Assembly (NCBI RefSeq): GCF_040958095.1
Contig: NC_091220.1
Span: 24,245,667 to 24,309,666 of the forward strand
Reading direction: 5' to 3'
Origin: Procambarus clarkii
Taxonomy: Eukaryota > Arthropoda > Malacostraca > Decapoda > Cambaridae
DNA: 64,000 nt
Shown: positions 1 to 64,000 of the stretch, piece by piece
How positions within the stretch are numbered: position 1 is the first letter of the stretch
Layout of the letters: each line of letters begins with the position of its first letter
The notes under the pieces: model-generated
The model's input: the letters and a program-made list of their open reading frames with translations, nothing else
What the model was told of the DNA's origin: nothing
Database searches by the model: none
Program-made: the position numbers and the translations under genes

Positions 1-387
1 TTGGAAAACAATAATAAATTTTGTATACAACAGTTACATGAACATTATCAATGGCAACTAAAAAACTCTCAAGAAATTTATAAAAACAACATTGAAGAAA
101 TTTACAGAAAAACAGAGGAAAGTAAAAATGAATTATGGAAAAGGGTTAACCTTTCAACTATTGACACTATACATGAACAAGAATTAATGTTAAATTACCA
201 ACTTGAATTAATAGAAAAAATCATATCCGAAATAAAAACGTATAGAATGAATGATGATGATGATGATGAATTAACACAAGATGACCAACGATCATTGAGT
301 CCCAGGATACAAACCAATCGCTCTTTGACCATTCCAATGTCAGCTGAACACCATATTGTTGCTTCTCCAGCCGAGATTCTGCCTTAG
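1..387 (+). CDS. Unknown protein, 5' end outside window
   Basis: The frame is open from the first base to a TAG at 385-387, giving 128 residues, and the first codon is TTG, so the true start probably lies to the left. The N-terminal two thirds is charged and likely helical, with many Glu, Lys and Gln and a regular pattern that could form a coiled coil. A run of five Asp residues follows near residues 85-89, then a Ser/Pro-rich tail. I recognise no domain. The AT-rich codon use matches the viral genes to its right. It converges on the phosphatase-like gene, with about 80 bases between the two stops. Confidence 0.45.
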   Translation: MENNNKFCIQQLHEHYQWQLKNSQEIYKNNIEEIYRKTEESKNELWKRVNLSTIDTIHEQELMLNYQLELIEKIISEIKTYRMNDDDDDELTQDDQRSLSPRIQTNRSLTIPMSAEHHIVASPAEILP

Positions 388-469
388 AAGCTTTCAGGCA
401 TAATCCCACGAGTACCTACTTAATCAAACTTATACAAATATAAAATAGATATTAATAGTACTACCATCA

Positions 470-1639
470 TTAAGTTGAAATTTGTATCCATATAAGGGGA
501 CGGCATTGTCTACTTCTGATCATATTACTATTTTCTACCTTGTTTCTATTTATCAATGATAACTGATCGTTTTCAAGCATAATAATATAGTAGTCACTGT
601 TTATACTTCTTTTGTTTTGTATAGTCGGAGTTGCTACTATCCCAAAGATTTCTCTTTCACAGAAACATATTAAGGATAAGAGAGCTGTGTCCCCATATGA
701 TGGGTACTGGTCAAATTTTCCTGGTGTGGATGAATCTGTTCCATTATTATGATTACAATTATTATTGGTTTTGCCGTTTAAGCCTTTAGAACGAATGAAC
801 ATATCAATATCATTTATTTGATGAGGGGGTATATTGAAAGCCCCAAATTCTTTCACCACGTCATATATGGTATAAGGTTTGATAGATATCAGTCGAATGT
901 ATTGCTGTTTGACTATTCCATCATCATAATTTGTCTTATAACTCTTTCTTTTCCTTCCCAAAGCATTATAAACAGCCCAGTTATCTATCAGTATGGCTCT
1001 CATATCTGAATATTTAGGGTATTTATTGACAATATATTTATATGACTTACTAACACCATATTTATTTTTAGATAAAACACAGTCATAATACGTTAAAATA
1101 TGTGTAAAATATTGACACATGTTCAATAAAGTTAAAACATTTTGAATATATGATCGTTTTCCTGCTGTCCATAAAATAAGAATATTGTGTTTGTTGGTGG
1201 CTTTCATATAATCTAACATCTCATATAAAAATGGCCGTGTATATACTGAGGGAAAACTATCTGACAAATTCAGTTGTAAATGTTGTTGTTCATCATATAT
1301 GGCTAATGTATTATCGAAATAAAAAACAAGAAGAGCTGGTGCTCTTTTTTCCTCGTTAAGATATCGTACATATTTATAAAAAAACATATCTTGAGTAAAA
1401 TCTTCAGTATCTAACATTTGTTTACTGTTAAAATAATTATTGATATTATCATTATTATTATTGTCATCATTGTTTATTGGTGACAATATATCAGTAGTAA
1501 TTGTAGATGTTGCAGTGGATGTAGTTGTTGTTGTTGTTGTTGACGTAGTGTCACTAGTTGTAATAATTGCATTAGTATCACTAGTTATATCAGAAGGAAA
1601 ATATGATAAAAGTGGCTTTGTAGTCATATTCCACGACAT
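470..1639 (-). CDS. NIF/FCP1-type CTD phosphatase-like protein, nucleophile missing
   Basis: This intact 389-residue frame resembles the HAD-superfamily NIF/FCP1 phosphatases, which act on the RNA polymerase II C-terminal domain in eukaryotes; related genes occur in iridoviruses. The N-terminal 75 residues are low-complexity Thr, Ser and Asn runs. The HAD core runs from about residue 100 to 225. In the DxDxT motif the second Asp (109) and the Thr (111) are present, but the first Asp, the nucleophile, is Tyr107. The motif II Thr lies in LWTAG (Thr157), a Lys sits near 197 and the late acidic motif is at IDN (Asp218). The protein is therefore probably catalytically dead, either by decay (GAT to TAT is one base) or as a binding pseudophosphatase. 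The family call is fairly secure; the substrate is unknown. Confidence 0.65.
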   Translation of the reverse strand: MSWNMTTKPLLSYFPSDITSDTNAIITTSDTTSTTTTTTTSTATSTITTDILSPINNDDNNNNDNINNYFNSKQMLDTEDFTQDMFFYKYVRYLNEEKRAPALLVFYFDNTLAIYDEQQHLQLNLSDSFPSVYTRPFLYEMLDYMKATNKHNILILWTAGKRSYIQNVLTLLNMCQYFTHILTYYDCVLSKNKYGVSKSYKYIVNKYPKYSDMRAILIDNWAVYNALGRKRKSYKTNYDDGIVKQQYIRLISIKPYTIYDVVKEFGAFNIPPHQINDIDMFIRSKGLNGKTNNNCNHNNGTDSSTPGKFDQYPSYGDTALLSLICFCEREIFGIVATPTIQNKRSINSDYYIIMLENDQLSLINRNKVENSNMIRSRQCRPLIWIQIST

Positions 1640-1688
1640 TGTTTTCTTATTTTTTAAAAATTAATTAAATTGTTATTAAATTGTTATT

Positions 1689-2909
1689 TTATTGGTCTTT
1701 GAAGGTAACAATTGGTAACATGGGATGCCCGAATAATGTGGAAGGAACATGTTTTATTACTTCTTCAATGAAATGTTTGTTAGAGTGTCGCATTTTCTCA
1801 GTGGGAAGTATATTTTTATCAAGTAAACATTTTAAATGAATCATGGCATGAACAATAATAACACAGACGTTAAGAACTGACATTCCCATTCCATTTAGAC
1901 TAGTGTTGAACATTTCTCCATTAGACATATTTACAAATGTATTATATAAAATACGATGGGAACCTAACACCTTATATCGTTTATCAGCTCCAGGCATAAC
2001 CAAACTATAAGCATCAAGGCCACTTACAAGAGACCGATCATTATCCTTGTTTATATAATTTTTATCATCATCTGTTTTTGTTTTATATATGTTTATTAAT
2101 TCATTTATTGAATAAAAAATATACACATTGTTAGTAGTATTGTCCAAATAAAGAGTAATATACTCACAATCTTGAGGATAGAGGAATTTACCATTTTGAT
2201 CTCTATCACCTTCTAATGCCAAATTCAAAATTTCCTTAATTACTTCTAATACATTTTCCTTATAGTCGATAAAATGATAATTTAGTGGAGGTGATCTTAA
2301 ATTTTTTTGAATTTCAAACCAACCCTCAAACAAATATTGATCAGCAGCTCCAAACAAATTTTCAATTGTTCTAGACATAAGTTGCTGAGCCACATGTCCC
2401 ATAAATCTAATCCAGTTATGATAAACTTTATTTATAATAAATTGAGCACTTTCATGTGTATAAATTAAAGCTGTTATTGGTTCAGCTTTAATGATGTTAC
2501 TCTTACCTAAACACTCCTCAATATACTGTAAACGTCTTTCAACTCTAGCTATTCGCGTTCTTTCCTCTAAATCATAATCATCAATATAAACATCCCTATT
2601 AAAGTGATTTTTCTCGTTTTTAATGTGACCAACTCGGTTTACACGATATGCGCCACTAGAGGGTAAGAGTCCACCTGCGGTTTTGACAAATGGTATGCGG
2701 TATCGTCGTTGTTGTTGTTGTTGTTATTGTTGAGATTTTCTTCGATTTTGTTCACTTTTTCTTTCACTAGTTTTTCTTGGTGTTGGTGTTGGTGTTGGTT
2801 TAGATTCTGTTGCTGTTGTTGCAGCTGTTTTGTTTTTTCTAATTTTATTATTAGATTCTTCATTTTCACTGGGACTGTAAATTCCTCCTTTTGATGGGAA
2901 ATAGGCCAT
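1689..2909 (-). pseudogene. Unknown protein gene interrupted by one in-frame stop
   Basis: A single frame runs from an ATG at 2909 to the stop at 1689, about 406 codons, broken only by a TAA at 2724-2726. That stop lies inside a run of CAA glutamine codons, so a CAA to TAA change explains it. No frameshift is needed: the frame stays open from 2723 through 2403 into the long downstream part. The N-terminus is Lys, Thr and Pro rich, the middle is basic and the C-terminal 230 residues look globular. I see no known domain. A 117-residue frame overlaps it at 2639-2992 on the same strand and is probably a shadow of the low-complexity stretch. Confidence 0.55.
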
Positions 2910-4649: not shown

Positions 4650-5195
4650 CTAAACCAGCAACGTATCACCTTCTTCTGCTGGAAATTCTTCACATATTTT
4701 TATCCATCCACCAGCTCTCCTGACAAATGGTGCAACTACTTCACTGGCATATTTGCTCATAAATGTTGCTATTTTTTCGCTCAAGTCCTCCATATTTTTG
4801 TCTTTGCAATACAAAGCCATCTGTCCACCAAAAGCATATAGTGCAATTATCCTGCCCCAATTCATAGCCATCTTTTCACCTTCAAATAGTTCATTGAAAA
4901 CTCCAACAAATGTCACATATCCAGTGTCATGAGTAATGTCCAATTTTTTAAATATTCCCTTAAATTGTTTTTCGTGACTGTGCACCATCGTCTTGATACA
5001 TCTGAGGAGTGTTTCTTCAACTTTATCATTAGTTGTCGCCTTTGTCTTCTCCATCAGTGAAAACACAATATACTTGGCTAAACTCTCCGCCTTATTCTCC
5101 ACGCTCTCTCCTTTCAGTGAAACTTCGGCAATATTAGCTTCATTCTGGTTACATCTTTCTACATTAGGCTCCTGTGTGTGATTACCTCTAATCAT
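4650..5195 (-). CDS. Bcl-2 family protein, Mcl-1-like
   Basis: This intact frame of 181 residues from the ATG at 5195 looks like a multidomain Bcl-2 family protein, which controls apoptosis at mitochondria. The BH1 signature NWGR is at residues 112-115 followed by a typical aromatic and Gly-rich helix, and the BH2 signature GGW is at 162-164. Residues 61-86 resemble the BH3-bearing helix of Mcl-1, but the usual Gly-Asp pair of BH3 is absent. No C-terminal membrane anchor is seen: the frame ends at a TAG just before an (AG)n tract, so the anchor may have been lost. The gene has no intron through the BH2 region, where animal homologues normally have one, which fits a virus-borne or retrocopied gene. 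An in-frame TTG at 5201 is a less likely start. Confidence 0.75.
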   Translation of the reverse strand: MIRGNHTQEPNVERCNQNEANIAEVSLKGESVENKAESLAKYIVFSLMEKTKATTNDKVEETLLRCIKTMVHSHEKQFKGIFKKLDITHDTGYVTFVGVFNELFEGEKMAMNWGRIIALYAFGGQMALYCKDKNMEDLSEKIATFMSKYASEVVAPFVRRAGGWIKICEEFPAEEGDTLLV

Positions 5196-5591
5196 GGACA
5201 ATGATAGTTGTCGTCACCCTGCATCAAAATCATATACAATAAGTTAGGATATAGCTTCTCTCTCTATATATATATAATACATTTAACCCCCCCCCCAAAA
5301 AAAAAGTGTCAAATTTTTTCCATAAATTACAACATAAACAAATAATGATTACCCGAAAAATGGTGTACCTGTCTATGTTTAGAAGTGACTGGCACTATAT
5401 TATTGACTTCCATCCAGTCAGCTGCTTCCAGCTGCCAATACTATTTGAAGTACCCCACCCCATTCCCTTTCTTCCTCCCAAAAATGTATCATGTATAACA
5501 TAGGCGATTTTTTTTTTGTTTTTTTTTTTGGCTGGAACCAAGTACATTATCAAATAAAATTTTAGTATATTATAAAAAAAATGATACAATT
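5196..5591. other. Intergenic stretch, no gene seen
   Basis: Short homopolymers (C9 with A9 near 5288-5306, T runs near 5510-5530) and a short TA tract near 5265 are present. I see no gene. It holds the space between the Bcl-2-like gene and the divergently transcribed family member A, so promoters for both may lie here; the last 40 bases before 5592 are nearly pure A/T. Confidence 0.5.
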
Positions 5592-6995
5592 ATGTCAAAT
5601 CAAAATCCAGTTTTAAGTGATACAGAAGAGATGGAGGAAAATGATTCGGATACTTCAATGGAACTGGAAGAATTGAATAACCCCTCAACTTCAACTTCTA
5701 CTCCAAAGACAAAAAAATCAAAGCTAAATCGAACCAGCACGACACAGGATGATGATGATTCGGATACTTCAGTGGAACTGGAAGACTTGAATAACCCCTC
5801 AACTTCAACTTCTACTCCAAAGACAAAAAAATCAAAGCTAAATCGAACAACTCCCAAAAAATCAAAGCTAAATCGAACAACTCCCAAAAAATCAAAGCTA
5901 AATCGAACAACTCCCAAAAAATCAAAGCTAAATCGAACAACTCCCAAAAAATCAAAGTCAAACCGAACCAACACCCGTCAACGAACACGGGGAACCTCAC
6001 CAGGCCCAGACACTAGAAGGAGATCATCTTCGGATATTGGATATAACAAACGTATATTATTTCCATTTAAATATTCTATCACGATGAATGATGTGGTAAA
6101 AGAGTGTAAATATAAGGTAATAGTATCTGAAAATATAAATCACATTACATTTAACAAGAAATTCTTCACATTTGTAAATTGTAAAACTTTACCATTAAGA
6201 TTGTTAATTCACCAGTATATTACATTATCAATGTATATTATTATAAATACCAATTATGAACCCAGATCCCGTGGTTCATGTTATCAAGCTGATGGCTCCT
6301 ATCATTTTCCCACGTCGTTTTGTGGAGATTTGCTCAATATCCGAAAAATATATGACATTGTTGGCCTGGGAGGAATCGGTAGAAATCTTAAATGGAAAAT
6401 AAATCCAGCTCATGTTTCAGATAATGGTATTCTTTCAAATTATTGTGAACAATATATTGACAAAATTAATTAATCAGCTTCTAGAAACAGTGAAAATAAA
6501 AATATATTCATTTATATAAAATTACTAACTAATTTAAGGACATTTTTAACTGTACAAAAAGATAATGAGTGGCAAAATGCTCTTAGAAATAATCTTATTG
6601 ATGAAATTGGAAAATTAAGTAAAATAATGAAAGCAACATGTAAAAATATTTATAAAGTAGTTTTTTGTGTTGAAAAATCTCCAATATATACACCAGAAAA
6701 TTTTGCCAAATATTTAGATGAAGTAAGAAATATGAAACACTTAAATTGTAATGTTAGTAAAATGTCTAAGGAAGAAGCGATAGAACTTCATTTTTCCCTA
6801 TTACAAAAATTTAATGATATTATAAAAACTGATACTCATATGTATGAAATTCAATATTATCTGGCATATATACCACCAAATCATTGGAAGGAGTCTCAAA
6901 ATGAAAGTAATAAAGTTAAGGGAGAACAAGTTTTTTATAACAATTTAAACAAGTTAAACTTTAATCCATATACATGCAAAATATCTATTATGTAA
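5592..6995 (+). pseudogene. Family member A of an unknown three-gene family (one in-frame stop)
   Basis: A single frame runs from 5592 to the stop at 6993-6995 and is broken only by a TAA at 6471-6473; no frameshift is needed. The N-terminal 135 residues are low-complexity: an acidic and Ser/Thr block repeated twice, then five copies of a TPKKSKLNR-type basic unit that resembles a nuclear localisation or DNA-binding tail. The C-terminal 330 residues match, block by block, the intact gene at 61481-62800: an IPLRLLIHxY-like block (residues 195-206), an IYxIxGLG-like block, the LTNL block just after the stop, an EIGKL block and an ExxELHF block. The function is unknown. The family is not one I recognise. 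Confidence 0.7.
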
Positions 6996-9339: not shown

Positions 9340-9573
9340 ATGCAAATATTTGTAAAAACTTTATCTGGAAAATCAATAACAGTAGATGTGGAGTCAAATG
9401 AATCTATTCAAAGTGTAAAAAACAAAATTCAAGATAAAGAAGGTATACCACCAGATCAACAGAGGTTGATATTTTCCGGGAAACAGTTAGATGATCAACA
9501 CACTATAAGTGATTATAATATTCAAAAGGATTCAACCCTCCACTTGGTATTAAGATTATGAGGAGGAGGATAA
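9340..9573 (+). pseudogene. Ubiquitin, stop codon before the terminal glycines
   Basis: The frame encodes ubiquitin from Met1 to Leu73, easily recognised by [11 protein letters not shown], the [11 protein letters not shown] region with Lys48, and [14 protein letters not shown]. Lys6, 11, 27, 29, 33, 48 and 63 and Ile44 are present. The codon for Arg74 is TGA (9559-9561), and the next codons are three glycines and a TAA, so one base change (CGA or AGA to TGA) removes the Gly-Gly tail needed for conjugation. The product as read ends at Leu73 and could not be conjugated. The monomeric arrangement with one extra glycine is typical of viral and ribosomal-type copies. Substitutions relative to animal ubiquitin show this is a diverged copy and not recent host contamination. 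Confidence 0.9.
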
Positions 9574-9631: not shown

Positions 9632-11624
9632 TCAATTTTCCTCATAATATTTGAAAATGACATGCCGCCTAATTTTGTAAGTTAAGGAAACCAAACCAGA
9701 TTCTGGAGTCCACGGAAATTGACAGAGATATACTGCTGAAGGTAAATGACAAATTCCATATTTCCTACAATAAGCCCTAATCTCATTTAAAATGGTTTTA
9801 ATTATACAGGAATGTCGACAAAGTACCCTTACATCTGACGAATGAGTATTTAAATGGGTACTCATCTTTATAATCATAGGAGGCGATGGCACAACTAAAG
9901 CTAAGATTATATTAGAATTTGGATAAACATAAACACATACATTATCAATTAGAGGGTGAGTCTTTAGGAGAGATTCGATCTCACCTAAACTTACATATTC
10001 GCCATTCTTTAATCTCTGGAAATTTATTTTACGATCAATTATGCGTAACATTCCTGATTCACAATTAATCTCCCCAATATCACCAGTTTTAAAACTCCAA
10101 ATACCTCTTTTGGATAAGAAAAAGTCTCCACCGTCATCTCCTTTTCCAGTAATCCTTGAATATTCTCGGGCCACCATAGGACCACTCACTACAACTTCCC
10201 CTCTAGGATGCTGCTTATCTGTCGTTTTAAAATCTCCTTCAATCCAATCAATTAATGATAGTTTTACTCTATAATTAGGATCACCACAATGTAATACATC
10301 ATCACTTTTGTTGCTGCTAGTAATACAAGCCGTAGTTTCTGTGGTACCATACCCTATTATTACTGAACAATTGAATAGCGTTCGAAGCTTTTGGTATGAC
10401 TCTTGAAATTAAATCACCTCCAATGATAACTGTCATCAATCGATTACCAAAAAAATGCTCACATATTTTCCGTAAAATATATTTATCCCAAACATGAGTA
10501 ATCCATTTCAGTTTAAATTTTTTTTCAAAGGCTATATGATCCCAAATTGAATAATTATTTTTTGTAATTCCATTCATTATATATTTTAACATAGAGGATA
10601 CAAAAAAAACACAAGTAGGTTGAGCTTCAATAAAATCCCCATGACATCCTTCCAAGATCTGCGAACTTTTGTTAGTTAATGTAGAGGGTGAGGAATAGCC
10701 AATTGTAATATTCATAGCAATACAAGATAATTCAATTATTAATTCTGTGACATAAGCCAATGGAAGATATGCTAAGTATAAGTTCCCCAATTGTCGATAA
10801 TCAGCACGAATACAAAATGCTGATACCGCAGAGAAAATATTACCATGAGTTAACTTCACTCCTTTAGGTTCGTCAATAGTACCACAGGTATACATGATAA
10901 ATGCCACATCACTCTCATCAATATATTTAATGTTATCCTTACATATATCCTCATTTTCTTTGCCGGCAAATATTAAACTATAATATGAAATTATGTTAAA
11001 ATTGTCACTCGTTTTATATGGTGAAACTGTTGGTCCTATTTTATTGATATGATCATCTAAGATAATGACATAATCTATTTGAGGACAAGTAGGTAAAATT
11101 TCCTTTTGGAGTTTAGCTAATAATGGTCCACAAGAGGTAATAATAATTCGAATTTCTGTTTACAAAAGAGAATTGATAATTGTTTTGGGGGGCAAGTTTG
11201 TTGGAAGACTGACGACAATTGCCCGTTGTCTAAGGCATCCAAGAGCTGCAATAAGCCATTCTTTCTGGGTTTCAGCATATATGGCAATCGATTGTTGTTG
11301 ATTTACCCTATTATCATTATTATTATTATTATTTTTATTATTAAAGTTAAAATAATAGTTTAAACCAATGCCGAATTTAATTACCAATTCATTGACCTCT
11401 TGATAAGACTGGTATATATATTTTCCTAGATTAATTTTTTCTATACATTTGTTTCCACCAAATCCTTGTCTTTTTTCTAAAAGCAGTCGAGTACCTAGAC
11501 AATCATCTAAACCATAATTGGCAGCAGCAAATTGTAGAATAGAAGGGGCTGTAATTGCTTGAGACTTTATTAAATTATTAACTAGAAAAAATCCATCATA
11601 TCTTCCTCCCTTTTTGAAGCTCAT
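9632..11624 (-). pseudogene. Long-chain acyl-CoA synthetase (ACSL3/4-type), broken
   Basis: Three frame segments (11624-11160, 10907-10317, 10189-9632) together match an AMP-binding long-chain acyl-CoA synthetase, which activates fatty acids with ATP and CoA. The first holds the DCLGTR and LGKYIYQSYQEV blocks typical of animal ACSL N-termini. The second opens with the P-loop-like YTCGTIDEPKGV (normally YTSGTTGxPKG), so two glycines are changed. The third holds the late RGEVVVSG and GDIGEI regions and the C-terminal domain. The first two are in one frame, separated by a TAA at 11160-11162, and the sequence between them still reads as ACSL; a frameshift lies near 10370. There is no intron over 2 kb. 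A (TA)n array lies 33 bases upstream of the start. It is either a gene the virus captured or a processed copy. Confidence 0.75.
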
Positions 11625-11652
11625 ATTTAGAAAAAAAATAGTCTTGGTTTCT

Positions 11653-14412: not shown

Positions 14413-14440
14413 TTTTTTATGTAAAAAAAAACTTAAAATT

Positions 14441-16275: not shown

Positions 16276-16277
16276 AA

Positions 16278-44062: not shown

Positions 44063-44180
44063 AGTGAACTGACACACCCACACCCTGTCCAAGAGTGGAT
44101 TTGTACACCCTTGCTGAAATAGATAAACTGTGTGATCGCAGGTGTATACTCTCTCTCTTGGGAAGACTCACAGGACAAAG

Positions 44181-49186: not shown

Positions 49187-49209
49187 CCACTAGAATAACT
49201 CTCAAAAAT

Positions 49210-49222
49210 AAGGGGAGGGGAG
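49210..49222 (+). promoter_or_regulatory. Polypurine tract
   Basis: aaggggaggggag directly precedes the 3' LTR and would prime plus-strand synthesis. Confidence 0.85.
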
Positions 49223-51204: not shown

Positions 51205-51517
51205 ATACCCACTATAACACAGTCCGTAAATGTAAGTCGTGATCCGACAAGCACTTAAATAAATCTTCCCGTAAATCCAAATGAAGTTCTCAGAAAAGTG
51301 TTAATTAATTAAATTTAATTTTCAAATTATTGAACTGTCCTTTTTTTTTTTTTTTGCCTCATTTTTCTCTGAAATGATATACTTTCATTATGAAATAGTC
51401 AATTTTTCTAATAAATTATGGTAATTTCCTTTTTTTTTTTTTTTTACAGTTAAAGATGGTGTGGTGTTCATTATGCAGAAATTAAATAACTCTTAACTGT
51501 CCCATTTGGCATTAATA
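51205..51517. other. AT-rich intergenic stretch, return to viral sequence
   Basis: After the retrotransposon the sequence is AT-rich again, with poly-T tracts near 51340 and 51430. No gene is seen. Confidence 0.5.
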
Positions 51518-51910: not shown

Positions 51911-52067
51911 ACAAATGTAAAATGTTTCACTATATAAAAAACTAATTGTGTTATATTTATATGGCAGAAGAATATTATAGTATTATAATACAAGAACAAA
52001 AAAAATAAAAAAATATATGACAGTATATTTATCCTTCTTCTACCTTTCTCTTCTTGTAAACTTAAAT

Positions 52068-55000
52068 ATGAAACCCAAACTAGTTGAATTATCCATGCTA
52101 GATTATGTGTGGATATATTCATGGAATGTTGAAGAACAAGAATTTTATGGGATTCCAGTGCCTCAAAGTCAAATTCAAGATAGTGGTTTAAATCGTGAAA
52201 ATATAGTACCACAAGACCCTATACAAGTAATTTTTGATGCATCAAATTTTGATCACTTAGTTGTAGTTACACAACAACGTGAACTATTTGATCGTTCTAT
52301 GATATTTTTGTATAATTGTGGGCTGATAGATTATTATACTCTTGAAGCTGAACATAGTCAGAGTGGTCATTTGATTATGGGCGAAGCCTCATTGGAAGAT
52401 TTGCAATTGGAAAAATATCGAGGTTACGCCGCTCGCGTTTTTTGTAAAGGTTATCGTAGGTGTATGGATCTCTTTAACTTTCTAAAATATAACTATCATC
52501 CATTTGGTATTAATGCTATGGGTAAATATTTTAATTCATACCAATGTTATTTTGACTGTGAACGACGACACAATCCAAAATTTCAATCTAGGGGTTTATT
52601 TAAAGTACATGACAATCAACTTGTTTTTGTGAGTGGGGATATCGACAACTTTTTTCCACCATATCGGATCCTCTCATTTGATATAGAAACTAGTCGGCAT
52701 GATTTAACTGGTGCCATTCCTCTAGGGGATAGTTCAAATGATAGGTTAGTTGCTACTTCTTTTCAGACAGCAACTGTAATGAATGCCCAATATCCAACTG
52801 AATTAAGTGACATAAATACCCTTTTGGTTGTATATTATCCAAATTCTCAAAACAAAAATAGAGAATTTTCCATGATAACTAAACAAGGAATTTCGATCCA
52901 TGTTGAGATATTTTCTTCAGAAAAACAAACTCTTTCTCGATCTTTGGAGTTACTAAGCAAACCTCAACATATTTTTGCTACTGGTTATAACACTGATGGA
53001 TACGACCATCCATTCCTCTTCAAACGAGCACTATTTCATGGTCTTTTACCTGGACATTTATTTTTCCACACTTACACTTTAAGGTCATATTGTGATATGA
53101 GAACCGTACCCCATATGACTCCACCTTGGATTTTAGATGTAGATGTTATGATTTGCCGTAAAAAAAATTTTCCAGTTGGTAAGTTTCTTGAACCACCTTC
53201 TGATAGTTTAGATGCTTGTGCAGAAGCTATACTGGGCCGCAATAAAGTAGATTTTAATATTGTAGCTATAAATAAAATGTATAAAAATTTAGAGGACAAT
53301 GGAGAGGAACCGGATAGTTTTTTTTTTGAAAATTTTCTAGATTATTGTACTGTAGATGTGGATCTGGTCACTCAATTGAATGGGCACCTTAATACTATTA
53401 GAATTACAATGGGTTTATCTCGTATGGGCGACCTTGACCCATACCATTGTCTTGGTGCCAGTTCTACAGCTATTGTGAGACGTTACCTTATAAATTTACT
53501 TAATTCAATTTATACGGCTCCTATTGACGAACATCTCATTAATAAAGTAAACTGTTATTCACAATCTCAATGGGAAATAGGTCGTATTCTTCCACAAAAT
53601 CGATACGCTAGACATTCCATCGAACAAAAGGATCATTTGGATACAGGTAGAAAAAACACTTACAAAGGCGCTGAAGTTCTTGAACCGAAAATTGGAGTAC
53701 ATTTAGCTTCTAATACTCATTCAATATTTGTTTTTGATTTTTGTTCATTATATCCTAGTTTAATTATTGACTATAATTTAAATCGAGGGTTCGTGACTCG
53801 AATTTCACGTTGTCAACTCCCAGAAGTTGATGAAAATTTATTTCATATACTTATTATGGATGAAGATCCTTATTTTGCTTATGTTAGTGTTAAAGTCCAA
53901 GAAGGAAAACCATACACTCAATCACCATTACGTCAGATATGTGAAAAATTAGTAAATGAACGAGGTATTATGAAAAAATTAGGAATGACCACTCAAGCTA
54001 ACGCTCTTAAGATTATGGTAAATTCTATTTATGGGGCAATGGCGGCCATTAAACTACTCGCAGATGAACTGGTCCCATGCATGGTTACTGGTTATGGTCG
54101 GTATCATCTTAATCGGGCTCAACATTTTTATACTAAAGATGAAAATGGAATTGGAGCGACAGTTTTATATGGCGACACTGATTCATTATTTCTGAAGGTA
54201 TCTCGTTCAGCAGGAACTGGAGATGAATTGGCTAATCGTTATAATACTAATCTCAGACAAGATATACCTTCTACATGTTATCTCAAACTAGCTTTCGAAA
54301 ATGCATTTGGTGTTCTAGTGCTAATAAAAAAAAAACATTATATGGCTATACAAGAAAGACAAGTTGGCAATAAATGTAAAATCAGTGGTTATAAAAAACG
54401 TATCAACCTTAGTAATCATCGTGACTTAACAAATTTATTGCAACATGTTCTTATGATTTTACGGGACAATGACCCAGCTCACATTTTTAAGAATATTAGA
54501 AATGAAGTAACACAATGGTTTAATCAAATAATAAATCAAAATGATGATGAGATCAACCACCAGCGGTTTTTGAGTACCATTAAAATTCGACCTCTTCATA
54601 TGTATAAATCAACTAGTTGCATTCATTATTGCTTGGGAACTAAAATTGAGCAACTTCATCCAGGTACAATAACAGCAGAAGGTGGTACTCATATTTCATA
54701 CTATACAATGGTACCATTAGTACCAAGGGCTTTAACTTTACCCAAGAGTGTGTGTCTATGTCCAGCTATTACATATAGACCCCAAATACAAATAATTAAT
54801 CGTTTAATGGGATTAATTTCTGATATAGGCCAAACTGTTAATGCTCTTATTCAGACTGCTGATTCAGAAAATGCGTCTCAATATAGTATAGAAAACTTAA
54901 GCTTGGATTATCAAAAAAATGAAAGATATCAGCTGTATGAAAAACATGTTGCACATGGTTATAGAGTTTGTAATCTGAGTGCCTGTGAGCTTTTGTTAAA

Positions 55001-55111
55001 TATTCCTTGCATTGAAATAACTTCAATATGGCCCTCATTTCATTACGAGTGTTTAGAAAATTCAAAATTTTATATGTCATCTTTGACTAGAAAACATAAA
55101 TGGTGGTATAG

Positions 55112-55203
<92 letters not shown>

Positions 55204-55637
55204 GGAATAAGAAAAAAAAATCTGAATGTAATTTTATTTTACGTACAACTTTTCATTATGATAAGACCAAAAGAAAAATGTGGGTGACTCTAGATTCTGA
55301 TGCTCAATGTCGAAAATTTAGCAATTTAAAAAATATATCACATTTTCTTTCTGGTAATGTAAGCAAACTGACACATTTGGTACCAACGATCTCAATGGTG
55401 AATAGTAGCAATATTAATAATACAGACATTTTATTCACATTAAATTCTAACTGTTTCGAAGAGATGTTAGCCTTTTTTATTTTTGTTTATAGTTTGGAGT
55501 GTGATATGTATGATATAATTATGGAAAATAAACAAAATAAGATAGATAATGATGATGATCGGTGGTTAATTATATTACCATTTGTCGCCATAAGGCGAGA
55601 CACATTGGCAGAAAATTCATATTATACATTTTATTAA
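52068..55637 (+). CDS. Family B DNA polymerase
   Basis: The intact protein of 1,189 residues is a viral replicative DNA polymerase. I choose the ATG at 52068; an in-frame ATG at 52017 would add 17 hydrophobic residues with no role in the family. Exonuclease motif I is FDIETS (Asp205, Glu207). Polymerase motif A is DFCSLYPS (Asp557), motif B holds NSIYG, motif C is YGDTDS (Asp703, Asp705), and a KKKHY motif follows near 54330, like the KKRY motif of the family. Both nuclease and polymerase sites look complete. The C-terminal region contains a Thr and then Asn run coded by (ACT)n and (AAT)n at about 55111-55202, an expansion that probably arose as a microsatellite. It is one of the longest intact frames in the block. 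Confidence 0.92.
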
Positions 55638-57235: not shown

Positions 57236-57774
57236 TAAGAAATTATACATTAAAAATGATAATGTAAAACTAAAAATTATTAAAAGAAATTAATAGATTT
57301 TTGTATTATTCCAATATGCTATATTTTTTTTTTTAACAAAACTAAATTCTATTTTTTTTTTTTTTTTTAGTAAATCACCGTTTGTAAGGAAATTAGCCTA
57401 AAAAATTTGCGAAAATCTTCTGAAATTGGTAGGTAAATCACATACTGGGAGCAAACAATGATTTGATATTAAAAGATAGTTGAGTGCTTCCGGCACCAAC
57501 ACCATGGAGAGAGGAGATAAAAAAAGATCCTCCGGCTCCTTTTCTTTACAGTGGCACGCTGCCTCCCGGAGAGAGCGGACGTGTGTGTGTGTCTCTCTCT
57601 CACACAGGCTAGTGCTGTTAACGGGGTTTGTGACAGCCTGCTACCCTGGCAGTGTCTTGTGCTCGATTTTCCTAGTGGACCATATAAATATAGTAAATCG
57701 CAGCAAATTTATTTCATTTCTTCTGTGAATTTTGATCGATTCACATATCAACCTTTTCCTGACACTAAAAGAAA
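57236..57774. other. Intergenic, partly GC-richer insertion
   Basis: 57236-57480 is AT-rich with poly-T tracts. From about 57481 to 57700 the composition becomes host-like, with a (TG)n and (TC)n stretch near 57580-57605. No gene is supported there; open frames of 75-82 codons lack coding character. Confidence 0.4.
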
Positions 57775-60383
57775 ATGAATGTGCTAATACTCATATTAAT
57801 AGTTGGATTTACCAAAAGTTGTATGTGGTCCAAAAAGAAAAACACAACTACACCAATTACATCTTCCCACTTAATTGTAACGGATGAAAATGAGAAAACA
57901 TCAACAGCCCCTCTAACATCATGGGAAAATGTTACAGTGACGGAAACATCTACATTTGTCTCACTAATGATAACTTCAGAAAATGAGAGAGCAGCTTACA
58001 ACACAACAACAACTAAAAAGAAAAAGATAACTAAACCTCTTATTAGCAACTCAACAACAGCCAAACCAAGACTGGTAGTAATATCAACAGAAAATGATAC
58101 TGATGAGGAGACAGCATCCACCCCTCAAGAAAGCCCGTCAACTTCAGATGAAGAGATAGGAACTACGCCACCCTTAACAACAACAACAATAACAACCACA
58201 ACAACCAATGTAACTGATGAGGAGACAGCATCTACCCCTCAAGAAAGCGGGCGAGGTGAAGGTCGGGGACGTCCGCTCTGTCCGGCCAACTGTTCTGAAC
58301 CGAGCTCGGACAGCATCTACCCCTCAAGAAAGCCAGGCAACAACATCATCAGAAAATGACTACACCTATGATGATGAAACAGAAACCACTCCTCCTTCGA
58401 CAACAACTATAACCACAACCACAACAAATGAAACCCACGAGGAGACGACAGCATCTACCCCTCAAGAAAGCCAGGCAACAACATCATCAGAAAATGACTA
58501 CACCTATGATGATGAAACAGAAACCACTCCTCCTTCGACAACAACTATAACCACAACCACAACAAATGAAACCCACGAGGAGACGACAGCATCTACCCCT
58601 CAAGAAAGCCAGGCAACAACATCATCAGAAAATGACTACACCTATGATGATGAAACAGAAACCACTCCTCCTTCGACAACAACTATAACCACAACCACAA
58701 CAAATGAAACCCACGAGGAGACGACAGCATCTACCCCTCAAGAAAGCCAGGCAACAACATCATCAGAAAATGACTACACCTATGATGATGAAACAGAAAC
58801 CACTCCTCCTTCGACAACAACCTATAACCACAACCACAACAAATGAAACCCACGAGGAGACGACAGCATCTACCCCTCAAGAAAGCCAGGCAACAACATC
58901 ATCAGAAAATGACTACACCTATGATGATGAAACAGAAACCACTCCTCCTTCGACAACAACCTATAACCACAACCACAACAAATGAAACCCACGAGGAGAC
59001 GACAGCATCTACCCCTCAAGAAAGCCAGGCAACAACATCATCAGAAAATGACTACACCTATGATGATGAAACAGAAACCACTCCTCCTTCGACAACAACT
59101 ATAACCACAACCACAACAAATGAAACCCACGAGGAGACGACAGCATCTACCCCTCAAGAAAGCCAGGCAACAACATCATCAGAAAATGACTACACCTATG
59201 ATGATGAAACAGAAACCACTCCTCCTTCGACAACAACTATAACCACAACCACAACAAATGAACACCCACGAGGAGACGACAGCATCTACCCCTCAAGAAA
59301 GCCAGGCAACAACATCATCAGAAAATGACTACACCTATGATGATGAAACAGAAACCACTCCTCCTTCGACAACAACCTATAACCACAACCACAACAAATG
59401 AACACCCACGAGGAGACGACAGCATCTACCCCTCAAGAAAGCCAGGCAACAACATCATCAGAAAATGACTACACCTATGATGATGAAACAGAAACCACTC
59501 CTCCTTCGACAACAACTATAACCACAACCACAACAAATGACACCCACGAGGAGACGACAGCATCTACCCCTCAAGAAAGCCAGGCAACAACATCATCAGA
59601 AAATGACTACACCTATGATGATGAAACAGAAACCACTCCTCCTTCGACAACAACCTATAACCACAACCACAACAAATGAACACCCACGAGGAGACGACAG
59701 CATCTACCCCTCAAGAAAGCCAGGCAACAACATCATCAGAAAATTACTACACCTATGATGATGAAACAGAAACCACTCCTCCTTCAACAACAACCATAAC
59801 CACAACCACAACCAATGACACCCACGAGGAGACGACAGCATCTACCCCTCAAGAAAGCCAGGCAACAACATCATCAGAAAATGACTACACCTATGATGAT
59901 GAAACAGAAACCACTCCTCCTTCAACAACAACCATAACCACAACAACAACAAATGAAACCCACGAGGAGACGACAGCATCTACCCCTCAAGAAAGACCGG
60001 CCATGGCCACAACACCACCACCATGGGAAAATGATACAGCGACGAAAACATATACAGTTGTCTCAACCGAAGAAATAATAATTATTAAGGCAACCACCCC
60101 ACCAACAACCGAAGAAAGCCAGTCAACTTTAGAAATAACAGAAGAAACTCCCAAAGAAGAAACCACCAACTCAACTATACCAAATGACACACAAGAAACA
60201 ATCAATATCAATTCGACTGTTCTTATTATTATTATTATAATTCCTATTTTTTTGATAAGTTTAGTACTTTTCATTTGGATTTATAATAACTTCTCATCTT
60301 ATACATTAAATGAAGATATAGAATTAAACGACTCTAATCAGGTTAAAACGAAATATGATTTAATAAAAACTAAATTTTTCTAA
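57775..60383 (+). pseudogene. Mucin-like type I membrane protein with 138-bp repeats, frameshifted
   Basis: A signal peptide at residues 1-15, a Thr/Ser/Glu-rich ectodomain, a membrane segment at about 60215-60275 and a short cytoplasmic tail ending at 60383 make a mucin-like surface protein. The repeat region encodes a 46-residue unit with a TTTTITTTTT run and a SENDYTYDDETETT block, suited to O-glycosylation. The copies fall into three frames because some units are 139 or 140 bases long and one early copy has an insertion, so the reading frame is lost at several points. The N-terminal part is open to 58359 and the C-terminal part from 59676. Repeat slippage or misassembly could cause the shifts. 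Confidence 0.65.
58225..60000. repeat. Tandem repeat, 138-bp unit, about 13 copies
   Basis: The word acagcatct recurs at 58310, 58448, 58586, 58724, 58863, 59002, 59140, 59279, 59419, 59557, 59697, 59835 and 59973. Spacing is 138 bases in seven intervals, 139 in three and 140 in two. A GC-rich insertion of about 60 bases (58248-58309) sits between the first partial copy at 58225 and the array. Confidence 0.95.
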
Positions 60384-60540: not shown

Positions 60541-61212
60541 TTAACATTTAAATTTATCCAATAAGAAGGTTAATTTGTTTTTTAAAGTTTCTAGGCCTAT
60601 TAGCATAATATTTTCAGGCTTTAATGCACCTGAACTTTCAATATTGAAATAAAATTGTTTTCGTTTATTACAATCTTCCAGAAAATAAGAAGAAGTGTTG
60701 TTACAGCAATCAAAATCTATATTAATTGTCGGATTCCATTTGGCGTGGTTTTTGCCAATCCCCTTGATAGCATATGCTTTTAAGCATAATTCTTGTCCAT
60801 TATTAAGTTTAACCAAAGGAATTGGGATTTCTTTGTGAAAAGATGGTATTATATCAGATGTTGTTATGAGGTATTGTTTGTCATCACGACATTTAACATC
60901 CAAAATAAATTCTACTGCACATTTCGTACAAAAGTTAATACATTGACATTTCCATGGAATCTTTAATTTATTAATGAATTCATCTGAAGGTATTGGAATT
61001 AGACCTAGACGATGAATAATGAACTCATCACTTAATATAGTTGTATTTTTTTTAATTTGAACCCAATCAATGGCTATAGTAGGAGTCTCAGCTATAAAAA
61101 TCCGCCGCAATCCATTTACTAGAGCTAAATTTATATTTTCTATTTTAAATTGTATCATGTCAGGTGATAAATCTAAAATTTTAATTGTTATCTGATCTGT
61201 ATTGATAGCCAT
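60541..61212 (-). CDS. RNA polymerase subunit RPB3/RpoD-like
   Basis: The intact 223-residue protein matches the RPB3/RpoD alpha-type subunit that nucleates assembly of multisubunit RNA polymerase. The N-terminal dimerisation part carries a LVNGLRRIFIAETPTIAIDW block and DEFIIHRLGLIPI, both hallmarks of the family. A CQC...CTKC cluster near residues 88-98 fits the zinc or iron-sulfur site of RPB3 relatives. GIGKNHAKWNP near residue 150 matches the conserved AxxGxGKxHAKWxP motif. The C-terminus forms the second dimerisation part. Length is shorter than animal RPB3 (about 275) and similar to the short archaeal form. The reading frame is undamaged. Confidence 0.9.
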   Translation of the reverse strand: MAINTDQITIKILDLSPDMIQFKIENINLALVNGLRRIFIAETPTIAIDWVQIKKNTTILSDEFIIHRLGLIPIPSDEFINKLKIPWKCQCINFCTKCAVEFILDVKCRDDKQYLITTSDIIPSFHKEIPIPLVKLNNGQELCLKAYAIKGIGKNHAKWNPTINIDFDCCNNTSSYFLEDCNKRKQFYFNIESSGALKPENIMLIGLETLKNKLTFLLDKFKC

Positions 61213-61480: not shown

Positions 61481-62800
61481 TTATTTATCTTTCTTTCTAA
61501 TTTTTCGACATTTTAAAATTACTAAGGGACCTTGGGTATCCCCACTACCATCAACATCAACATTATTATCAGAATCTTCATCATCATCATCACCCATATT
61601 TCTATGGATATCAGTGTCATTAATTTCACAAGTCTCTCTATTGATCTTAGCATATCTGAAATTATACTTAATATTATTAGTATTCATTTTTTGGGAAGAT
61701 GCATTATCATAGTCTAATGCACTGTACAAAATATATTTCTGTAAACCTACTACTGCCTGTTGATGTGTAGCAGCAGTTAGTGAATCAAACACAGTAAGTA
61801 ATTTGAAGTGTAATTTAGTGGCATCTCTAGAATTGATCTCTTTGATATCATGATCACAAATTACAGTGTCCGTCAATTTTCTAACAAATTTGTAAAATAA
61901 TTCACTACTATACATGTTTGCTTTTTCAATAAAATTTACCATGTATAAGCTATTATTATCTATATACTTTTTATTGTTAAATTGAATATGTTTTCTTAAC
62001 TTACCAATTTCATTAATAAGATATTTATAAATTAACTTTTGATCCTTCCGGTCTTGTTTTACCATTAAAAATGTCCATAAATTTGTTAACATTCTAATAT
62101 ATAATATTATGTATTTATATTCTAACGAAAAACCTTCATTTTTAGGTATTTGTTCAATGTATTTAGACAAATATTGTTTTAAAGTTTTCATGTCAAAGAA
62201 ACGAGTATTAAATTTCAGTTTGAATCCTGGAAAGCCCAATCCAGCGATTTGATATATTTTTCTAACTATAAAGTTATTTTTATTGGATTCCGATTGAGGG
62301 AAAATATAAGTACCATTGTTTTGAATACCCCTTGGACGAGAAGAAGAATTGAGATTTCTATGAGAGGGGGCATTTATTCCACCCTTCTGGAGTAGACCAT
62401 AAGAAGATTTATTTCCATTAGATGGACCAGGATCACTGATCTCGTCTACTTCATCTTCAATATTATCTTGTATGACATTTCTATGAATTTCATCATCTTC
62501 TGTTGGACTGTTTCTATCTTCTCTTACTTTGGCTCTTTTGAATCTCCTAATTAATCCATAATTAATTCCCCCTTTTTTTACTGATCCTAATCCCTCTCCT
62601 GTAAATATATTAAGTGAAATATAGTAATGAATTAACAATCTTAGTGGTATTTCTTGTTTTACTGTTAACAGTGGGAAAAACTTTTTATTAAAATTTCCAG
62701 TTGAATATGTTTTTGAAATTCTTATTTGGAAATATTTTTCTTTTCCATTACGATTTTGGAAATTAAAAACAATTAATTGACTCCTAGTTGAACTGGACAT
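61481..62800 (-). CDS. Family member C of the unknown three-gene family, intact
   Basis: This 439-residue frame is undamaged and serves as the reference for the two decayed relatives at 5592-6995 and 7140-8627. It has an N-terminal domain with an IPLRLLIHYYISL block (about residues 51-63), a variable Ser/Pro/Gly-rich insert (75-170), an IYQIAGLG block (about 184-191), a LTNLWTFL block (about 238-245), an EIGKL block, and a TKLHFKLL block (about 328-335), followed by an acidic Asp-rich and basic tail. There is no signal peptide or membrane segment. The blocks recur in the same order in all three members. I do not recognise the family. Confidence 0.75.
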   Translation of the reverse strand: MSSSTRSQLIVFNFQNRNGKEKYFQIRISKTYSTGNFNKKFFPLLTVKQEIPLRLLIHYYISLNIFTGEGLGSVKKGGINYGLIRRFKRAKVREDRNSPTEDDEIHRNVIQDNIEDEVDEISDPGPSNGNKSSYGLLQKGGINAPSHRNLNSSSRPRGIQNNGTYIFPQSESNKNNFIVRKIYQIAGLGFPGFKLKFNTRFFDMKTLKQYLSKYIEQIPKNEGFSLEYKYIILYIRMLTNLWTFLMVKQDRKDQKLIYKYLINEIGKLRKHIQFNNKKYIDNNSLYMVNFIEKANMYSSELFYKFVRKLTDTVICDHDIKEINSRDATKLHFKLLTVFDSLTAATHQQAVVGLQKYILYSALDYDNASSQKMNTNNIKYNFRYAKINRETCEINDTDIHRNMGDDDDEDSDNNVDVDGSGDTQGPLVILKCRKIRKKDK

Positions 62801-62842
62801 TTATTTTATACTATTTATTTTTATATATTTTATAAAAAAAAA

Positions 62843-63061
62843 TTATTTTTTAATAATTTTACATACACTTTCTAAATTTAATAAAGTCGAATCATCCAAA
62901 TTAAAAAAAATTAAATCTTCTGTTTTTATTTGTTTTTTAAAATCATTGAAAAGGTTTTCTAATTTGTTATGTTTGTTATTATTGTTTTCTCCATTTTTTG
63001 GAGATTCTATTTCAATTTGTGGTTTAGGGGACGATTTATTATTTCCAGGTGAAGAAAACAT
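62843..63061 (-). CDS. Small unknown protein, 72 residues
   Basis: A short intact frame, polar and Asn/Lys-rich in the first half and with an amphipathic helix-like second half. It lies between family member C and the helicase gene on the same strand. It may be a real small gene or chance. Confidence 0.3.
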   Translation of the reverse strand: MFSSPGNNKSSPKPQIEIESPKNGENNNNKHNKLENLFNDFKKQIKTEDLIFFNLDDSTLLNLESVCKIIKK

Positions 63062-63149
63062 TATATGTTTTTCAGTATATTTTCATTTCACACACACATA
63101 TAAATATAGAGTATATATCCTGTTTTTTTTTTTTTAATACCTGTTTAAT

Positions 63150-64000
63150 TTAATTTTGAGTTAATCTAGCAAGATTTCTATCATTTATTTCACAATTTTG
63201 TTCACAAATTCCCTCTATGATACTAATAGTTGGTTCATTAATTGGTAAATGGGATTGTGGAATATTTGCCAAACGATTGCTGTTTATTGGTAGCCATGAT
63301 ACCTGGTATACGTTTTCAAAAAAAAGATGAGCATCTGCCAATGAAATATTTTTAAGGGCCTTGGGGAAACTACGCAAAAGAACTGATAGACGATGTAGGG
63401 TAATGAACCCACTATATGGTTTCTCTACCAGATGGCACTCTTCCATTATTTGGGCTACAATTCCACGTTCTGGTGAATATAACTCAGTTGCCTCCATAAT
63501 GTTAATTGGGAGTGTGAGAAAGTTAACAGTCTGGTTCATTGATACAAACCAGGGTGAATTGAGTTTATCATGACAGTTAGCATGAATAAAGAGTGCCATC
63601 ATTCCTTCAGTCAGACGCTTTTTCTTTCGATCATCAGTCATGAGATGAAATTGGGGAAAAATTGAATATTGAAATGACGTAGGCACTTCAGAATCAAACC
63701 GCGCACGGAATGAAATGAAACGAAGTCGTTGCATCAAGGCTGAGTCATATTCGCTGAAAGTTGGGCAATTGTTGCCAAACAAAAAAATAGGTGTTGCTAA
63801 ATTATATGTATCCCCATCCATATAGTTTTGACGAATCCACATTGGGGCATGACCGCTCAATTGCTTTAAAAACAGAGAATTAAGGGTTTTAGTCGTACTC
63901 AGTTCATCCATGTACCACATTCTAACCATTTTTCCACCTCTTCCTAAATCATGGGTCCGTTCTTGGAGACCCTTATGAGCTGTATGTACTGAGAGAATAC
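63150..64000 (-). CDS. D5-type SF3 helicase-primase, C-terminal part, runs off the window
   Basis: The frame is open from the right edge (64000) to the stop at 63150; the N-terminus, including any primase domain and the Walker A motif, lies outside. The visible part shows an SF3 helicase of the D5 family, the replicative helicase of large DNA viruses: a Walker B-like MWYMDELS segment near 63925-63900, then the IFLFGNNCPTFSEYDSALMQRLRFISF block at about 63815-63735, which matches sensor 1 with the polar Asn and the Arg-containing end of the helicase core. The rest is the C-terminal D5 region. The ATG at 63929 is internal, since the frame continues upstream. No lesion is seen. Confidence 0.75.
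   Translation of the reverse strand, partial: ILSVHTAHKGLQERTHDLGRGGKMVRMWYMDELSTTKTLNSLFLKQLSGHAPMWIRQNYMDGDTYNLATPIFLFGNNCPTFSEYDSALMQRLRFISFRARFDSEVPTSFQYSIFPQFHLMTDDRKKKRLTEGMMALFIHANCHDKLNSPWFVSMNQTVNFLTLPINIMEATELYSPERGIVAQIMEECHLVEKPYSGFITLHRLSVLLRSFPKALKNISLADAHLFFENVYQVSWLPINSNRLANIPQSHLPINEPTISIIEGICEQNCEINDRNLARLTQN

What the first reader, a model, noticed from the sequence alone, without database searches (positions are those of the whole stretch)
1..64000. Endogenous large DNA virus in a crustacean-like genome
Seen: DNA polymerase B, D5 helicase, two RNA polymerase subunits, thymidine kinase, sulfhydryl oxidase and FEN-like genes in AT-rich gene-dense DNA, interrupted by a complete LTR element, a SINE and long microsatellites, with many genes broken. 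Inference: an integrated nucleocytoplasmic virus in decay. The gene set does not fit nimaviruses, the usual integrated viruses of decapods, and may come from a Pimascovirales lineage near Mininucleoviridae.
Basis: partly seen in the sequence, partly recalled or inferred. Interest (0 to 1): 0.9.

Follow-up and report, generated by a model that had tools for sequence, protein, structure and literature searches.

The report
Many-copy giant virus in crustacean genome
A stretch of animal chromosome, probably from a crayfish, is part of a large DNA virus that matches no named family and lies in the genome in roughly a hundred or more closely similar copies, so it seems to have spread recently, somewhat like a giant jumping gene.

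Summary
The core observation holds. The window lies inside a 31-Mb contig of a 4.03-Gb assembly and reads as AT-rich large-DNA-virus sequence: intact family-B polymerase, D5-type helicase, RPB1 and thymidine-kinase pieces, RPB3, Erv1. A Gypsy element has interrupted it; the empty site occurs in 5 of 5 other copies sampled. The scale was missed: 140 matches for the D5 piece and 150 listed for RPB3, of which 38 and 29 reach the window's own score. Full-length open D5 frames number 37 of those 140, so 'in decay' is only half right. A LINE-like insertion is shared at 99.6-100% by 5 of 8 other copies sampled: that group descends from one already interrupted ancestor. Neighbouring DNA adds an rve integrase, IAP, F-box, RR2, Fic and a weak PIF-3 match. 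The polymerase matches no named virus; its best hit (72%) is filed under Astathelohania contejeani, a crayfish parasite. Mininucleoviridae is not supported; a deep lineage near Naldaviricetes is my tentative placement.

The parts
473..1660 (-). HAD/NIF-type phosphatase, open frame of 396 aa between stops
   Evidence: PF03031 9e-10; NCBIfam TIGR02251 2.5e-5 and TIGR01684 'viral phosphatase' 8.9e-5, both below cut-off
4653..5213 (-). Bcl-2 family protein, open
   Evidence: PF00452 1.4e-22; PDB Bcl-xL 4e-16
5499..6992 (+). paralogue of the protein at 61484-62800, split by an in-frame stop into two pieces (searched apart)
   Evidence: blastp of pieces, best 1.6e-14; stop
9340..9558 (+). ubiquitin-like protein, open (start worked out by hand from the match)
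   Evidence: PF00240 3.6e-30
9635..11651 (-). acyl-CoA-synthetase-like gene in three pieces (one in-frame stop, one frame change)
   Evidence: PF00501 5.7e-15 and PF13193 3.9e-4, PF00501 5.1e-6 on one of the 29 pieces
14336..16210 (+). membrane glycoprotein with signal peptide and C-terminal transmembrane stretch (by eye); no family match
   Evidence: open frame; no significant Pfam match
16272..17928 (+). cysteine-rich membrane or secreted protein in overlapping pieces; no family match
19420..20673 (-). thymidine-kinase gene broken into pieces in different frames
   Evidence: PF00265 2.7e-10 on 19420-19845, 0.054 on 19839-20201; that the upstream pieces belong to it is by eye
26608..26856 (+). 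Skp1-like protein
   Evidence: PF01466 1.6e-12
29843..32299 (-). two adjacent open frames, same frame, separated by one stop; upstream piece looks vWA-like by eye
   Evidence: Pfam VWA_2 only 0.23
33170..33440 (+). SINE-like tRNA-derived repeat (recalled identification, limits by eye)
   Evidence: sequence read; not found
35986..36933 (+). Erv1/ALR-type sulfhydryl oxidase with 228-aa N-terminal extension, open
   Evidence: PF04777 2e-4; relatives at 99% and 47%
38600..40560 (+). RPB1 in two overlapping pieces in different frames; the first piece assigned by eye
   Evidence: PF00623 9.4e-7; first piece no match
42059..51205 (+). Gypsy-type LTR retrotransposon, absent from five other copies; integrase lies before reverse transcriptase
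52017..55634 (+). family-B DNA polymerase, intact
57769..60380 (+). mucin-like membrane protein with 138-bp tandem repeats, reading frame interrupted
60544..61212 (-). RPB3 of animal RNA polymerase II type, intact; 2.60-2.62 kb from D5 in ten of ten copies compared
61484..62800 (-). 439-aa protein, intact paralogue of 5499-6992
63153..63998 (-). C-terminal part of D5-type primase-helicase; runs on to the right of the window in a 1405-aa open frame

Best explanation
The window is the inner part of one copy of an endogenous large double-stranded DNA virus whose repeating unit is about 100 kb or more, present in roughly a hundred or more copies in a 4.03-Gb animal genome, probably a crayfish. Shown: the same core genes recur in the same spacing on many contigs, a good part of them as long open frames and several dozen identical in the parts searched; one group of copies shares a LINE-like insertion at nearly 100% identity; the Gypsy element in the window came after this copy was formed; a second, inverted copy lies beside it. 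Inferred: the virus entered the germ line, perhaps with its own rve integrase, which sits in long inverted repeats, and then multiplied recently, at least partly as an already endogenous element, so that it now behaves like a giant transposon. Its gene set mixes a D5-type helicase and RNA polymerase subunits (RPB1, and an RPB3 probably taken from an animal) with features reminiscent of arthropod nuclear viruses (PIF-3-like protein, HAD phosphatase, sulfhydryl oxidase with N-terminal extension, IAP) and a set of host-control genes (Bcl-2, IAP, ubiquitin, Skp1, F-box). I place it as a deep, unnamed lineage, tentatively nearest to Naldaviricetes.
For: Window position and genome size. Copy lists: polymerase domain 93 matches of 165 candidates, 80 without a stop in the match, 21 with open frames of 1200 aa or more (a few short rows are probably host polymerase exons); D5 piece 140 matches of 183 candidates, 104 over its full length, 116 without a stop in the match, 38 at the window's own score, 37 in open frames of at least 1390 aa; RPB3 150 of 184 candidates, 132 without a stop, 29 at the window's score; all these tallies are my hand counts and include the window itself. 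D5-RPB3 distance 2603-2617 bp in ten of ten copies compared. D5-gene19 offset 29.29-29.33 kb in four, 28.9-29.9 kb in four more, 33.8 and 36.4 kb in two of ten. Gene18 and gene19 on opposite sides of D5 in eight copies, span 97-136 kb. Shared LINE-like insert in 5 of 8 other copies sampled, 99.65-100%. Gypsy empty site 5 of 5. Eight polymerase copies 98.5-99.7% identical over 2952 nt, mean pN/pS 0.46. Gene18 and integrase on both sides of D5 in opposite strands in C128, outer 3.2 kb 99.97% identical. Second inverted copy on C71: four markers, centres 24.180-24.192 Mb. IAP, rve, Fic, PIF3; RR2, F-box.
Against: Element ends, a target duplication of the element and host junctions were not found; beyond the integrase the copies still share sequence, and at C128 the outward samples on one side match other viral pieces. 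The integrase query was a diverged inner copy, its rve match is below cut-off and only 91 of 18,913 candidates were scored, so its tie to mobility is inference. PIF-3 rests on 38 residues at 0.0014, below cut-off; PIF-1 gave nothing (silent controls); PIF-2 and P74 searches did not complete. Rows are not copies one for one: fragments of one copy give several rows, lists stop near 150, and copies on short contigs may be haplotypic or assembly duplicates. The pN/pS sample is the eight best profile scorers, so biased to intact genes. The five insert-bearing copies were picked for their 29-30 kb D5-gene19 offset; the three picked otherwise lack it at that place. A virus that itself carried the LINE could also explain the sharing.
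Confidence: 0.7

Rival explanations
1. A decaying integrated Pimascovirales virus close to Mininucleoviridae.
For: Polymerase, D5, RPB1 and Erv1 are shared with that family, which is also rich in low-complexity sequence (PMC6960288, Results parts 1 and 2).
Against: Gene18-gene19 span of 97-136 kb in eight copies against 67-74 kb; TK and RR2 present; no NCLDV capsid match (silent controls); polymerase not closer to CmV1 than to others; long open frames in many copies.
Confidence: 0.08
2. A divergent endogenous nimavirus, the kind already known from decapods, or another member of Naldaviricetes in the strict sense.
For: Weak PIF-3 match; nimaviruses are multi-copy and integrated in crustaceans (PMC7016691 and PMC10871703, passages); weak match to the TIGR01684 viral phosphatase model; IAP present.
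Against: No named virus among 15 polymerase profile hits; homologues of the lef-4, -8, -9 RNA polymerase subunits are not found in nimavirids, and no D5 helicase is in the table of naldavirus core genes (PMC10271883 passages); PIF-1 family silent.
Confidence: 0.2
3. The copies arose by repeated infection and integration of one circulating, LINE-carrying virus rather than by spread of an endogenous element.
For: pN/pS of 0.46 among polymerase copies (biased sample) and many identical proteins fit selection in a replicating virus.
Against: A LINE-like element and a SAM-synthetase-like stretch beside it are more easily gained inside a genome; but viruses can pick up host transposons (PMC6401454, search listing only), so this is not excluded.
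Confidence: 0.3
4. Exogenous viral DNA in the sequenced animal assembled as extra contigs.
For: Three of the eight polymerase loci lie on contigs of 37-55 kb.
Against: The window is at 24.2 Mb of a 31-Mb contig and other copies lie inside contigs of 30-65 Mb; the Gypsy insertion is absent from the five other copies sampled.
Confidence: 0.04

Closest known systems
Endogenous nimaviruses of shrimps (Nimav-1_LVa, majaniviruses, pemoniviruses)
   Same: large DNA virus, several integrated copies in crustacean chromosomes, captured host genes, integrases as a theme (PMC7016691 and PMC10871703: listing, abstract start and passages seen)
   Different: no sequence match of the polymerase to a nimavirus; RNA polymerase subunits and D5 here; far more copies here than the 'at least 12' of Nimav-1_LVa; telomere targeting not tested
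Mininucleoviridae (PaV1, CmV1, DhV1)
   Same: crustacean hosts, low-complexity stretches, polymerase B, D5, RPB1, Erv1
   Different: 67-74 kb genomes without TK or RR2; a capsid protein was not found here and a packaging ATPase was not searched by name
Protein P0001, 'DNA polymerase catalytic subunit [Astathelohania contejeani]'
   Same: 72% identical over 98% of the polymerase
   Different: filed as microsporidian; probably host crayfish or viral DNA in that assembly (inference)
Mavericks/Polintons
   Same: DNA element with family-B polymerase, rve integrase and inverted repeats (definition recalled)
   Different: unit several times larger; polymerase matches PF00136 with an exonuclease domain; D5 and RNA polymerase subunits present
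Integrated herpesviruses of fish (AciHV-3 in sturgeon; Teratorn, recalled)
   Same: virus-sized DNA integrated in an animal genome
   Different: no herpesvirus gene beyond the polymerase was recognised here; the AciHV-3 paper was seen in a search listing only

Membership tests
Mininucleoviridae | genome of 67-74 kb | tested here: not met
   gene18 and gene19 lie 97-136 kb apart around D5 in eight copies; caveat: ends not found, and insertions (9.1 kb of Gypsy in C71, others) inflate single copies
Mininucleoviridae | NCLDV major capsid protein | tested here: inconclusive
   PF04451 no match in the genome, but no control genome rang
Mininucleoviridae | no nucleotide-metabolism enzymes except a thymidylate kinase | tested here: not met
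   thymidine kinase pieces; ribonucleotide reductase small subunit 1.2e-61 in L018
Mininucleoviridae | RPB2 and RPB5 subunits, packaging ATPase, G9-A16 and L1-F9 proteins | not tested
   not searched by name; none appeared in the Pfam scans made
Naldaviricetes | pif genes (pif-0, 1, 2, 3, 5) | tested here: inconclusive
   PIF3 0.0014, below cut-off; PIF-1 no match with silent controls; P74 and PIF-2 searches did not complete
Naldaviricetes | p33 sulfhydryl oxidase | tested here: inconclusive
   Evr1_Alr match 2e-4; structure model too poor to compare (pLDDT 34)
Naldaviricetes | family-B DNA polymerase of the class | tested here: inconclusive
   domain present; no naldavirus among profile hits; fold search mixes families
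Nimaviridae | core genes recognisably similar to white spot syndrome virus | tested here: inconclusive
   no nimavirus hit for polymerase or Erv1; other genes not searched
Nucleocytoviricota | polymerase B, D5-type helicase, multi-subunit RNA polymerase | tested here: met
   the D5 match is below the model's cut-off
Nucleocytoviricota | double-jelly-roll capsid protein, packaging ATPase, VLTF3 | tested here: inconclusive
   capsid only (silent controls); the other two not tested
Maverick/Polinton | 15-40 kb element with protein-primed polymerase and terminal inverted repeats (recalled definition) | tested here: not met
   PF00136/PF03104 polymerase and span of 97-136 kb; an integrase and inverted repeats do occur

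The most novel reading that the evidence does not exclude
A previously undescribed order-level lineage of animal large DNA viruses that bridges arthropod nuclear viruses (PIF-type entry genes) and nucleocytoplasmic viruses (D5, RNA polymerase), and that has become a self-propagating giant transposon of about 100 kb or more, with its own integrase and over a hundred recent copies in one crustacean genome.
Probability: 0.3. Interest if true: 0.95.

Novelty: new variant of a known kind. Interest (0 to 1): 0.85.

Why it matters
The best comparable case that I saw, an endogenous nimavirus of shrimp, has at least a dozen copies. Around a hundred or more close copies with many open core genes, one group sharing a retrotransposon insertion, would show that a virus-sized genome can spread inside an animal genome as a transposon does, and would make its mechanism testable. 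The gene mix bears on the link between arthropod nuclear viruses and nucleocytoplasmic viruses. It also warns that databases of crustaceans and their parasites may hold such genes under wrong names.

Tried and rejected
Rejected: a FEN gene (no family match); my impression that L017:3738-5009 is PIF-2 (Pfam shows DUF4518 at 7.5e-31 and 4e-16); my impression that 16272-17928 is a PIF and 14336-16210 baculovirus-F-like (nothing telling in Pfam up to E 10; PDB nothing for 16807-17928); egoviruses as relatives (a memory that did not hold).

Led nowhere: six IMG/VR scans found no relative (the patterns are few, so a miss says little). Fold of Erv1 unusable. The polymerase fold (pLDDT 58) matches replicative family-B polymerases of many groups; families not listed are not excluded. 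D5 piece and phosphatase found no PDB relative. Element ends: followed the inverted stretch 7 kb and sampled beyond; sequence stayed shared, so my first idea that the integrase marks the terminus is unproven. A frame change common in gene19 copies, which I first took for proof of spread inside the genome, was dropped: it lies at a 10-nt run and goes both ways. The weak Orf78 (ac78) matches (0.0081 on L010:4915-6405; 0.029 on one of 29 pieces) were not used.

Papers: PMC6960288 outline and Results parts 1 and 2 of 3; PMC10271883, PMC7016691, PMC10871703, PMC7616845 and PMC12638062 passages; the rest search listings only. I saw no report of this virus in the listings; bioRxiv and most subscription journals are not held.

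Full report
What is in the window. The 64 kb are AT-rich (GC 0.22-0.39 per kb except for the LTR element and a few repeat-rich kilobases) and hold many open frames on both strands. Family matches: family-B DNA polymerase with exonuclease domain, RPB1 domain 2, RPB3 and Erv1/ALR, HAD/NIF phosphatase, Bcl-2, acyl-CoA-synthetase pieces, thymidine kinase pieces, ubiquitin and Skp1, and the C-terminal part of a D5-type helicase (below cut-off).

Interruptions. A Gypsy-type element fills 42059-51205. Its two 1984-nt LTRs differ by three mismatches and one gap, and its domains run zinc knuckle, integrase, reverse transcriptase, RNase H, an order I recall from Gmr1-like elements. In five other copies of this viral region, all that I sampled there, the sequence runs from window position 42058 straight on to 51205 with a four-base overlap. 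So the element landed in this copy, with a 4-bp duplication, after the viral region had been formed.

It is chromosomal and high-copy. The window is C71:24245667-24309666 of a 4,027,284,227-bp assembly in 2308 contigs; C71 is 31.1 Mb. The following tallies are hand counts that include the window. Polymerase domain: 93 matches, 13 with a stop inside the match, 21 in open frames of at least 1200 aa; a few short rows are probably host exons. D5 piece: 140 matches, 104 over the full query, 24 with a stop inside, 38 at the window's own score, 37 in open frames of at least 1390 aa. RPB3: 150 scored of 184 candidates, 18 with a stop inside, 29 at the window's own score. A gene 31 kb left of the window (gene18, L018:8558-9238): 150 scored of 197 candidates. 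A gene 28 kb right of the window (gene19, L019:8448-9206): 152 matches, many of them two pieces of one copy. The lists stop near 150, rows are not copies one for one, and some short contigs may duplicate placed loci; about a hundred copies or more is my reading.

The copies are one kind of element. RPB3 lies 2603-2617 bp from D5 in ten of ten copies that I compared. The D5-gene19 offset is 29,288-29,333 bp in four copies, 28.9-29.9 kb in four more, 33.8 and 36.4 kb in two. In eight copies gene18 and gene19 lie on opposite sides of D5, 97-136 kb apart with insertions included. Eight polymerase copies, those that the search scored best, are 98.5-99.7% identical to the window over 2952 nt; mean pN/pS over 36 pairs is 0.46, one copy has a stop, and the window has two private changes. 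That sample favours intact genes.

Recent spread. Between D5 and gene19 the window's locus holds a SAM-synthetase-like stretch and a LINE-like element (identified by reading). At the same distance from D5 I sampled eight other copies. Five (C9, C1, C124, C27, C34), chosen because their D5-gene19 offset was 29-30 kb, carry this LINE-like sequence at 99.65-100%. The three chosen otherwise do not: C102 and C54 have other viral sequence there, and C71 at 6.9 Mb matched only a repeat. So at least one group of copies descends from a single ancestor that already held the insertion. Spread inside the genome is the simplest reading; a virus carrying the insertion is not excluded. On C71 itself a second copy lies in the opposite orientation: four markers (an 800-bp sample 100% identical to window 17306-18105, a partial D5, RPB3, gene19) have centres of symmetry at 24.180-24.192 Mb.

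Integrase and inverted repeats. L009 holds an rve integrase frame (9.5e-6, below cut-off). Its scored relatives are 87-95% alike, fragments 82-94% (91 of 18,913 candidates). In 19 gene18-integrase pairs that I compared the integrase lies 5.2-7.7 kb from gene18 in 17 and about 12 kb in two (C62, C71). Gene18 lies on the same strand as D5 at 83-99 kb in eleven of fifteen copies compared, and at 47, 68, 131 and 136 kb in four; it lies on the opposite strand, on the other side of D5, at 40-51 kb in five and 25 kb in one of six. I picked these pairs by eye from the lists, so they are examples, not a census. C128 has both arrangements, and the 3.2 kb outside its two integrases are 99.97% identical in inverted order, the next 4 kb 99.1%, the sample after that 97.4%. 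Farther out copies still share sequence, one side of C128 matching other viral pieces, so the ends were not reached. Long inverted repeats with integrase are likely; integrase-driven movement is inference.

Other genes beside the window: two-BIR IAP 2.1e-31, Fic 9.8e-10, PIF-3 0.0014, below cut-off, in a 160-aa protein with thirteen cysteines, ribonucleotide reductase small subunit 1.2e-61, F-box 1.5e-5, a DUF4518 protein in two pieces. With Bcl-2, ubiquitin and Skp1 this looks like a rich set for holding back cell death and steering ubiquitin ligases; the roles follow from the families and were not tested.

What lineage. The polymerase finds one close relative (72%, filed under Astathelohania contejeani, a microsporidian of crayfish) and three unnamed relatives near 30%; a profile of all five finds no named virus among 15 hits, only word-sharing candidates being scored. 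Against PDB the profile scores herpes simplex (112 bits), archaeal (106), alpha (103), delta (100) and ASFV (88) polymerases much alike. The fold model (pLDDT 58) is equally unspecific. Erv1 finds a 99% and a 47% relative, both unnamed. RPB3 is close to RNA polymerase II RPB3 (208 bits for the best chain, 80.5 for the best archaeal one) and so probably a captured animal gene, while RPB1 is far from all. No NCLDV capsid match was found and no PIF-1 match either; in both searches the controls were silent. The mixed gene content and the weak PIF-3 match leave a deep lineage near Naldaviricetes as my tentative placement; no tree was made.

Integrity. Broken in the window: thymidine kinase, RPB1, acyl-CoA-synthetase, one copy of a paralogous pair, and the two-part gene at 29843-32299 if it is one gene. 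Open: polymerase, RPB3, Erv1, Bcl-2, phosphatase, D5. The young Gypsy element's 1274-aa frame is open, which speaks for good base accuracy here, but in gene19 six copies sampled for being split differ by a length change at or next to a 10-nt run, in both directions, so not every frame change need be real.

Host. Crayfish is inferred from the Astathelohania link (PMC7616845 passages name Austropotamobius and Pacifastacus as hosts), a decapod-type SINE that I recall, and genome size.

Noticed in passing
P0001: A protein filed as DNA polymerase of the microsporidian Astathelohania contejeani is 72% identical to this viral polymerase; it is probably host crayfish or viral DNA in that assembly.
   Followed up: partly
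window 45362-49183: The Gypsy-type element has integrase before reverse transcriptase, an order otherwise typical of Copia (Gmr1-like, recalled).
   Followed up: no
L011:1949-5074 and 6832-7491: Two near-identical 598-aa reverse-transcriptase-like frames in opposite orientation and a GIY-YIG-like frame, perhaps Penelope-like elements (by eye).
   Followed up: no
L012:7158-8334: S-adenosylmethionine-synthetase-like stretch in two frames beside the LINE-like insert, perhaps a host retrocopy (by eye).
   Followed up: no
G000:C53:3797862-3809014: Four full-length and one split gene18 copies in a row, most about 2.6 kb apart.
   Followed up: no
window 58309-59995: Twelve copies of a 138-bp unit, 98% alike, inside a threonine-rich membrane protein; the frame is interrupted in the array.
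   Followed up: no
L017:3738-5009: DUF4518 protein, a family I recall from animal C3orf38, in two pieces; possibly a captured host gene.
   Followed up: no
L009:6339-7532 and 7564-9339: Two viral genes in divergent orientation that look paralogous by eye.
   Followed up: no
P0016: A 99% identical Erv1 protein in an unnamed public read assembly suggests the same or a very near species, or its transcripts.
   Followed up: no
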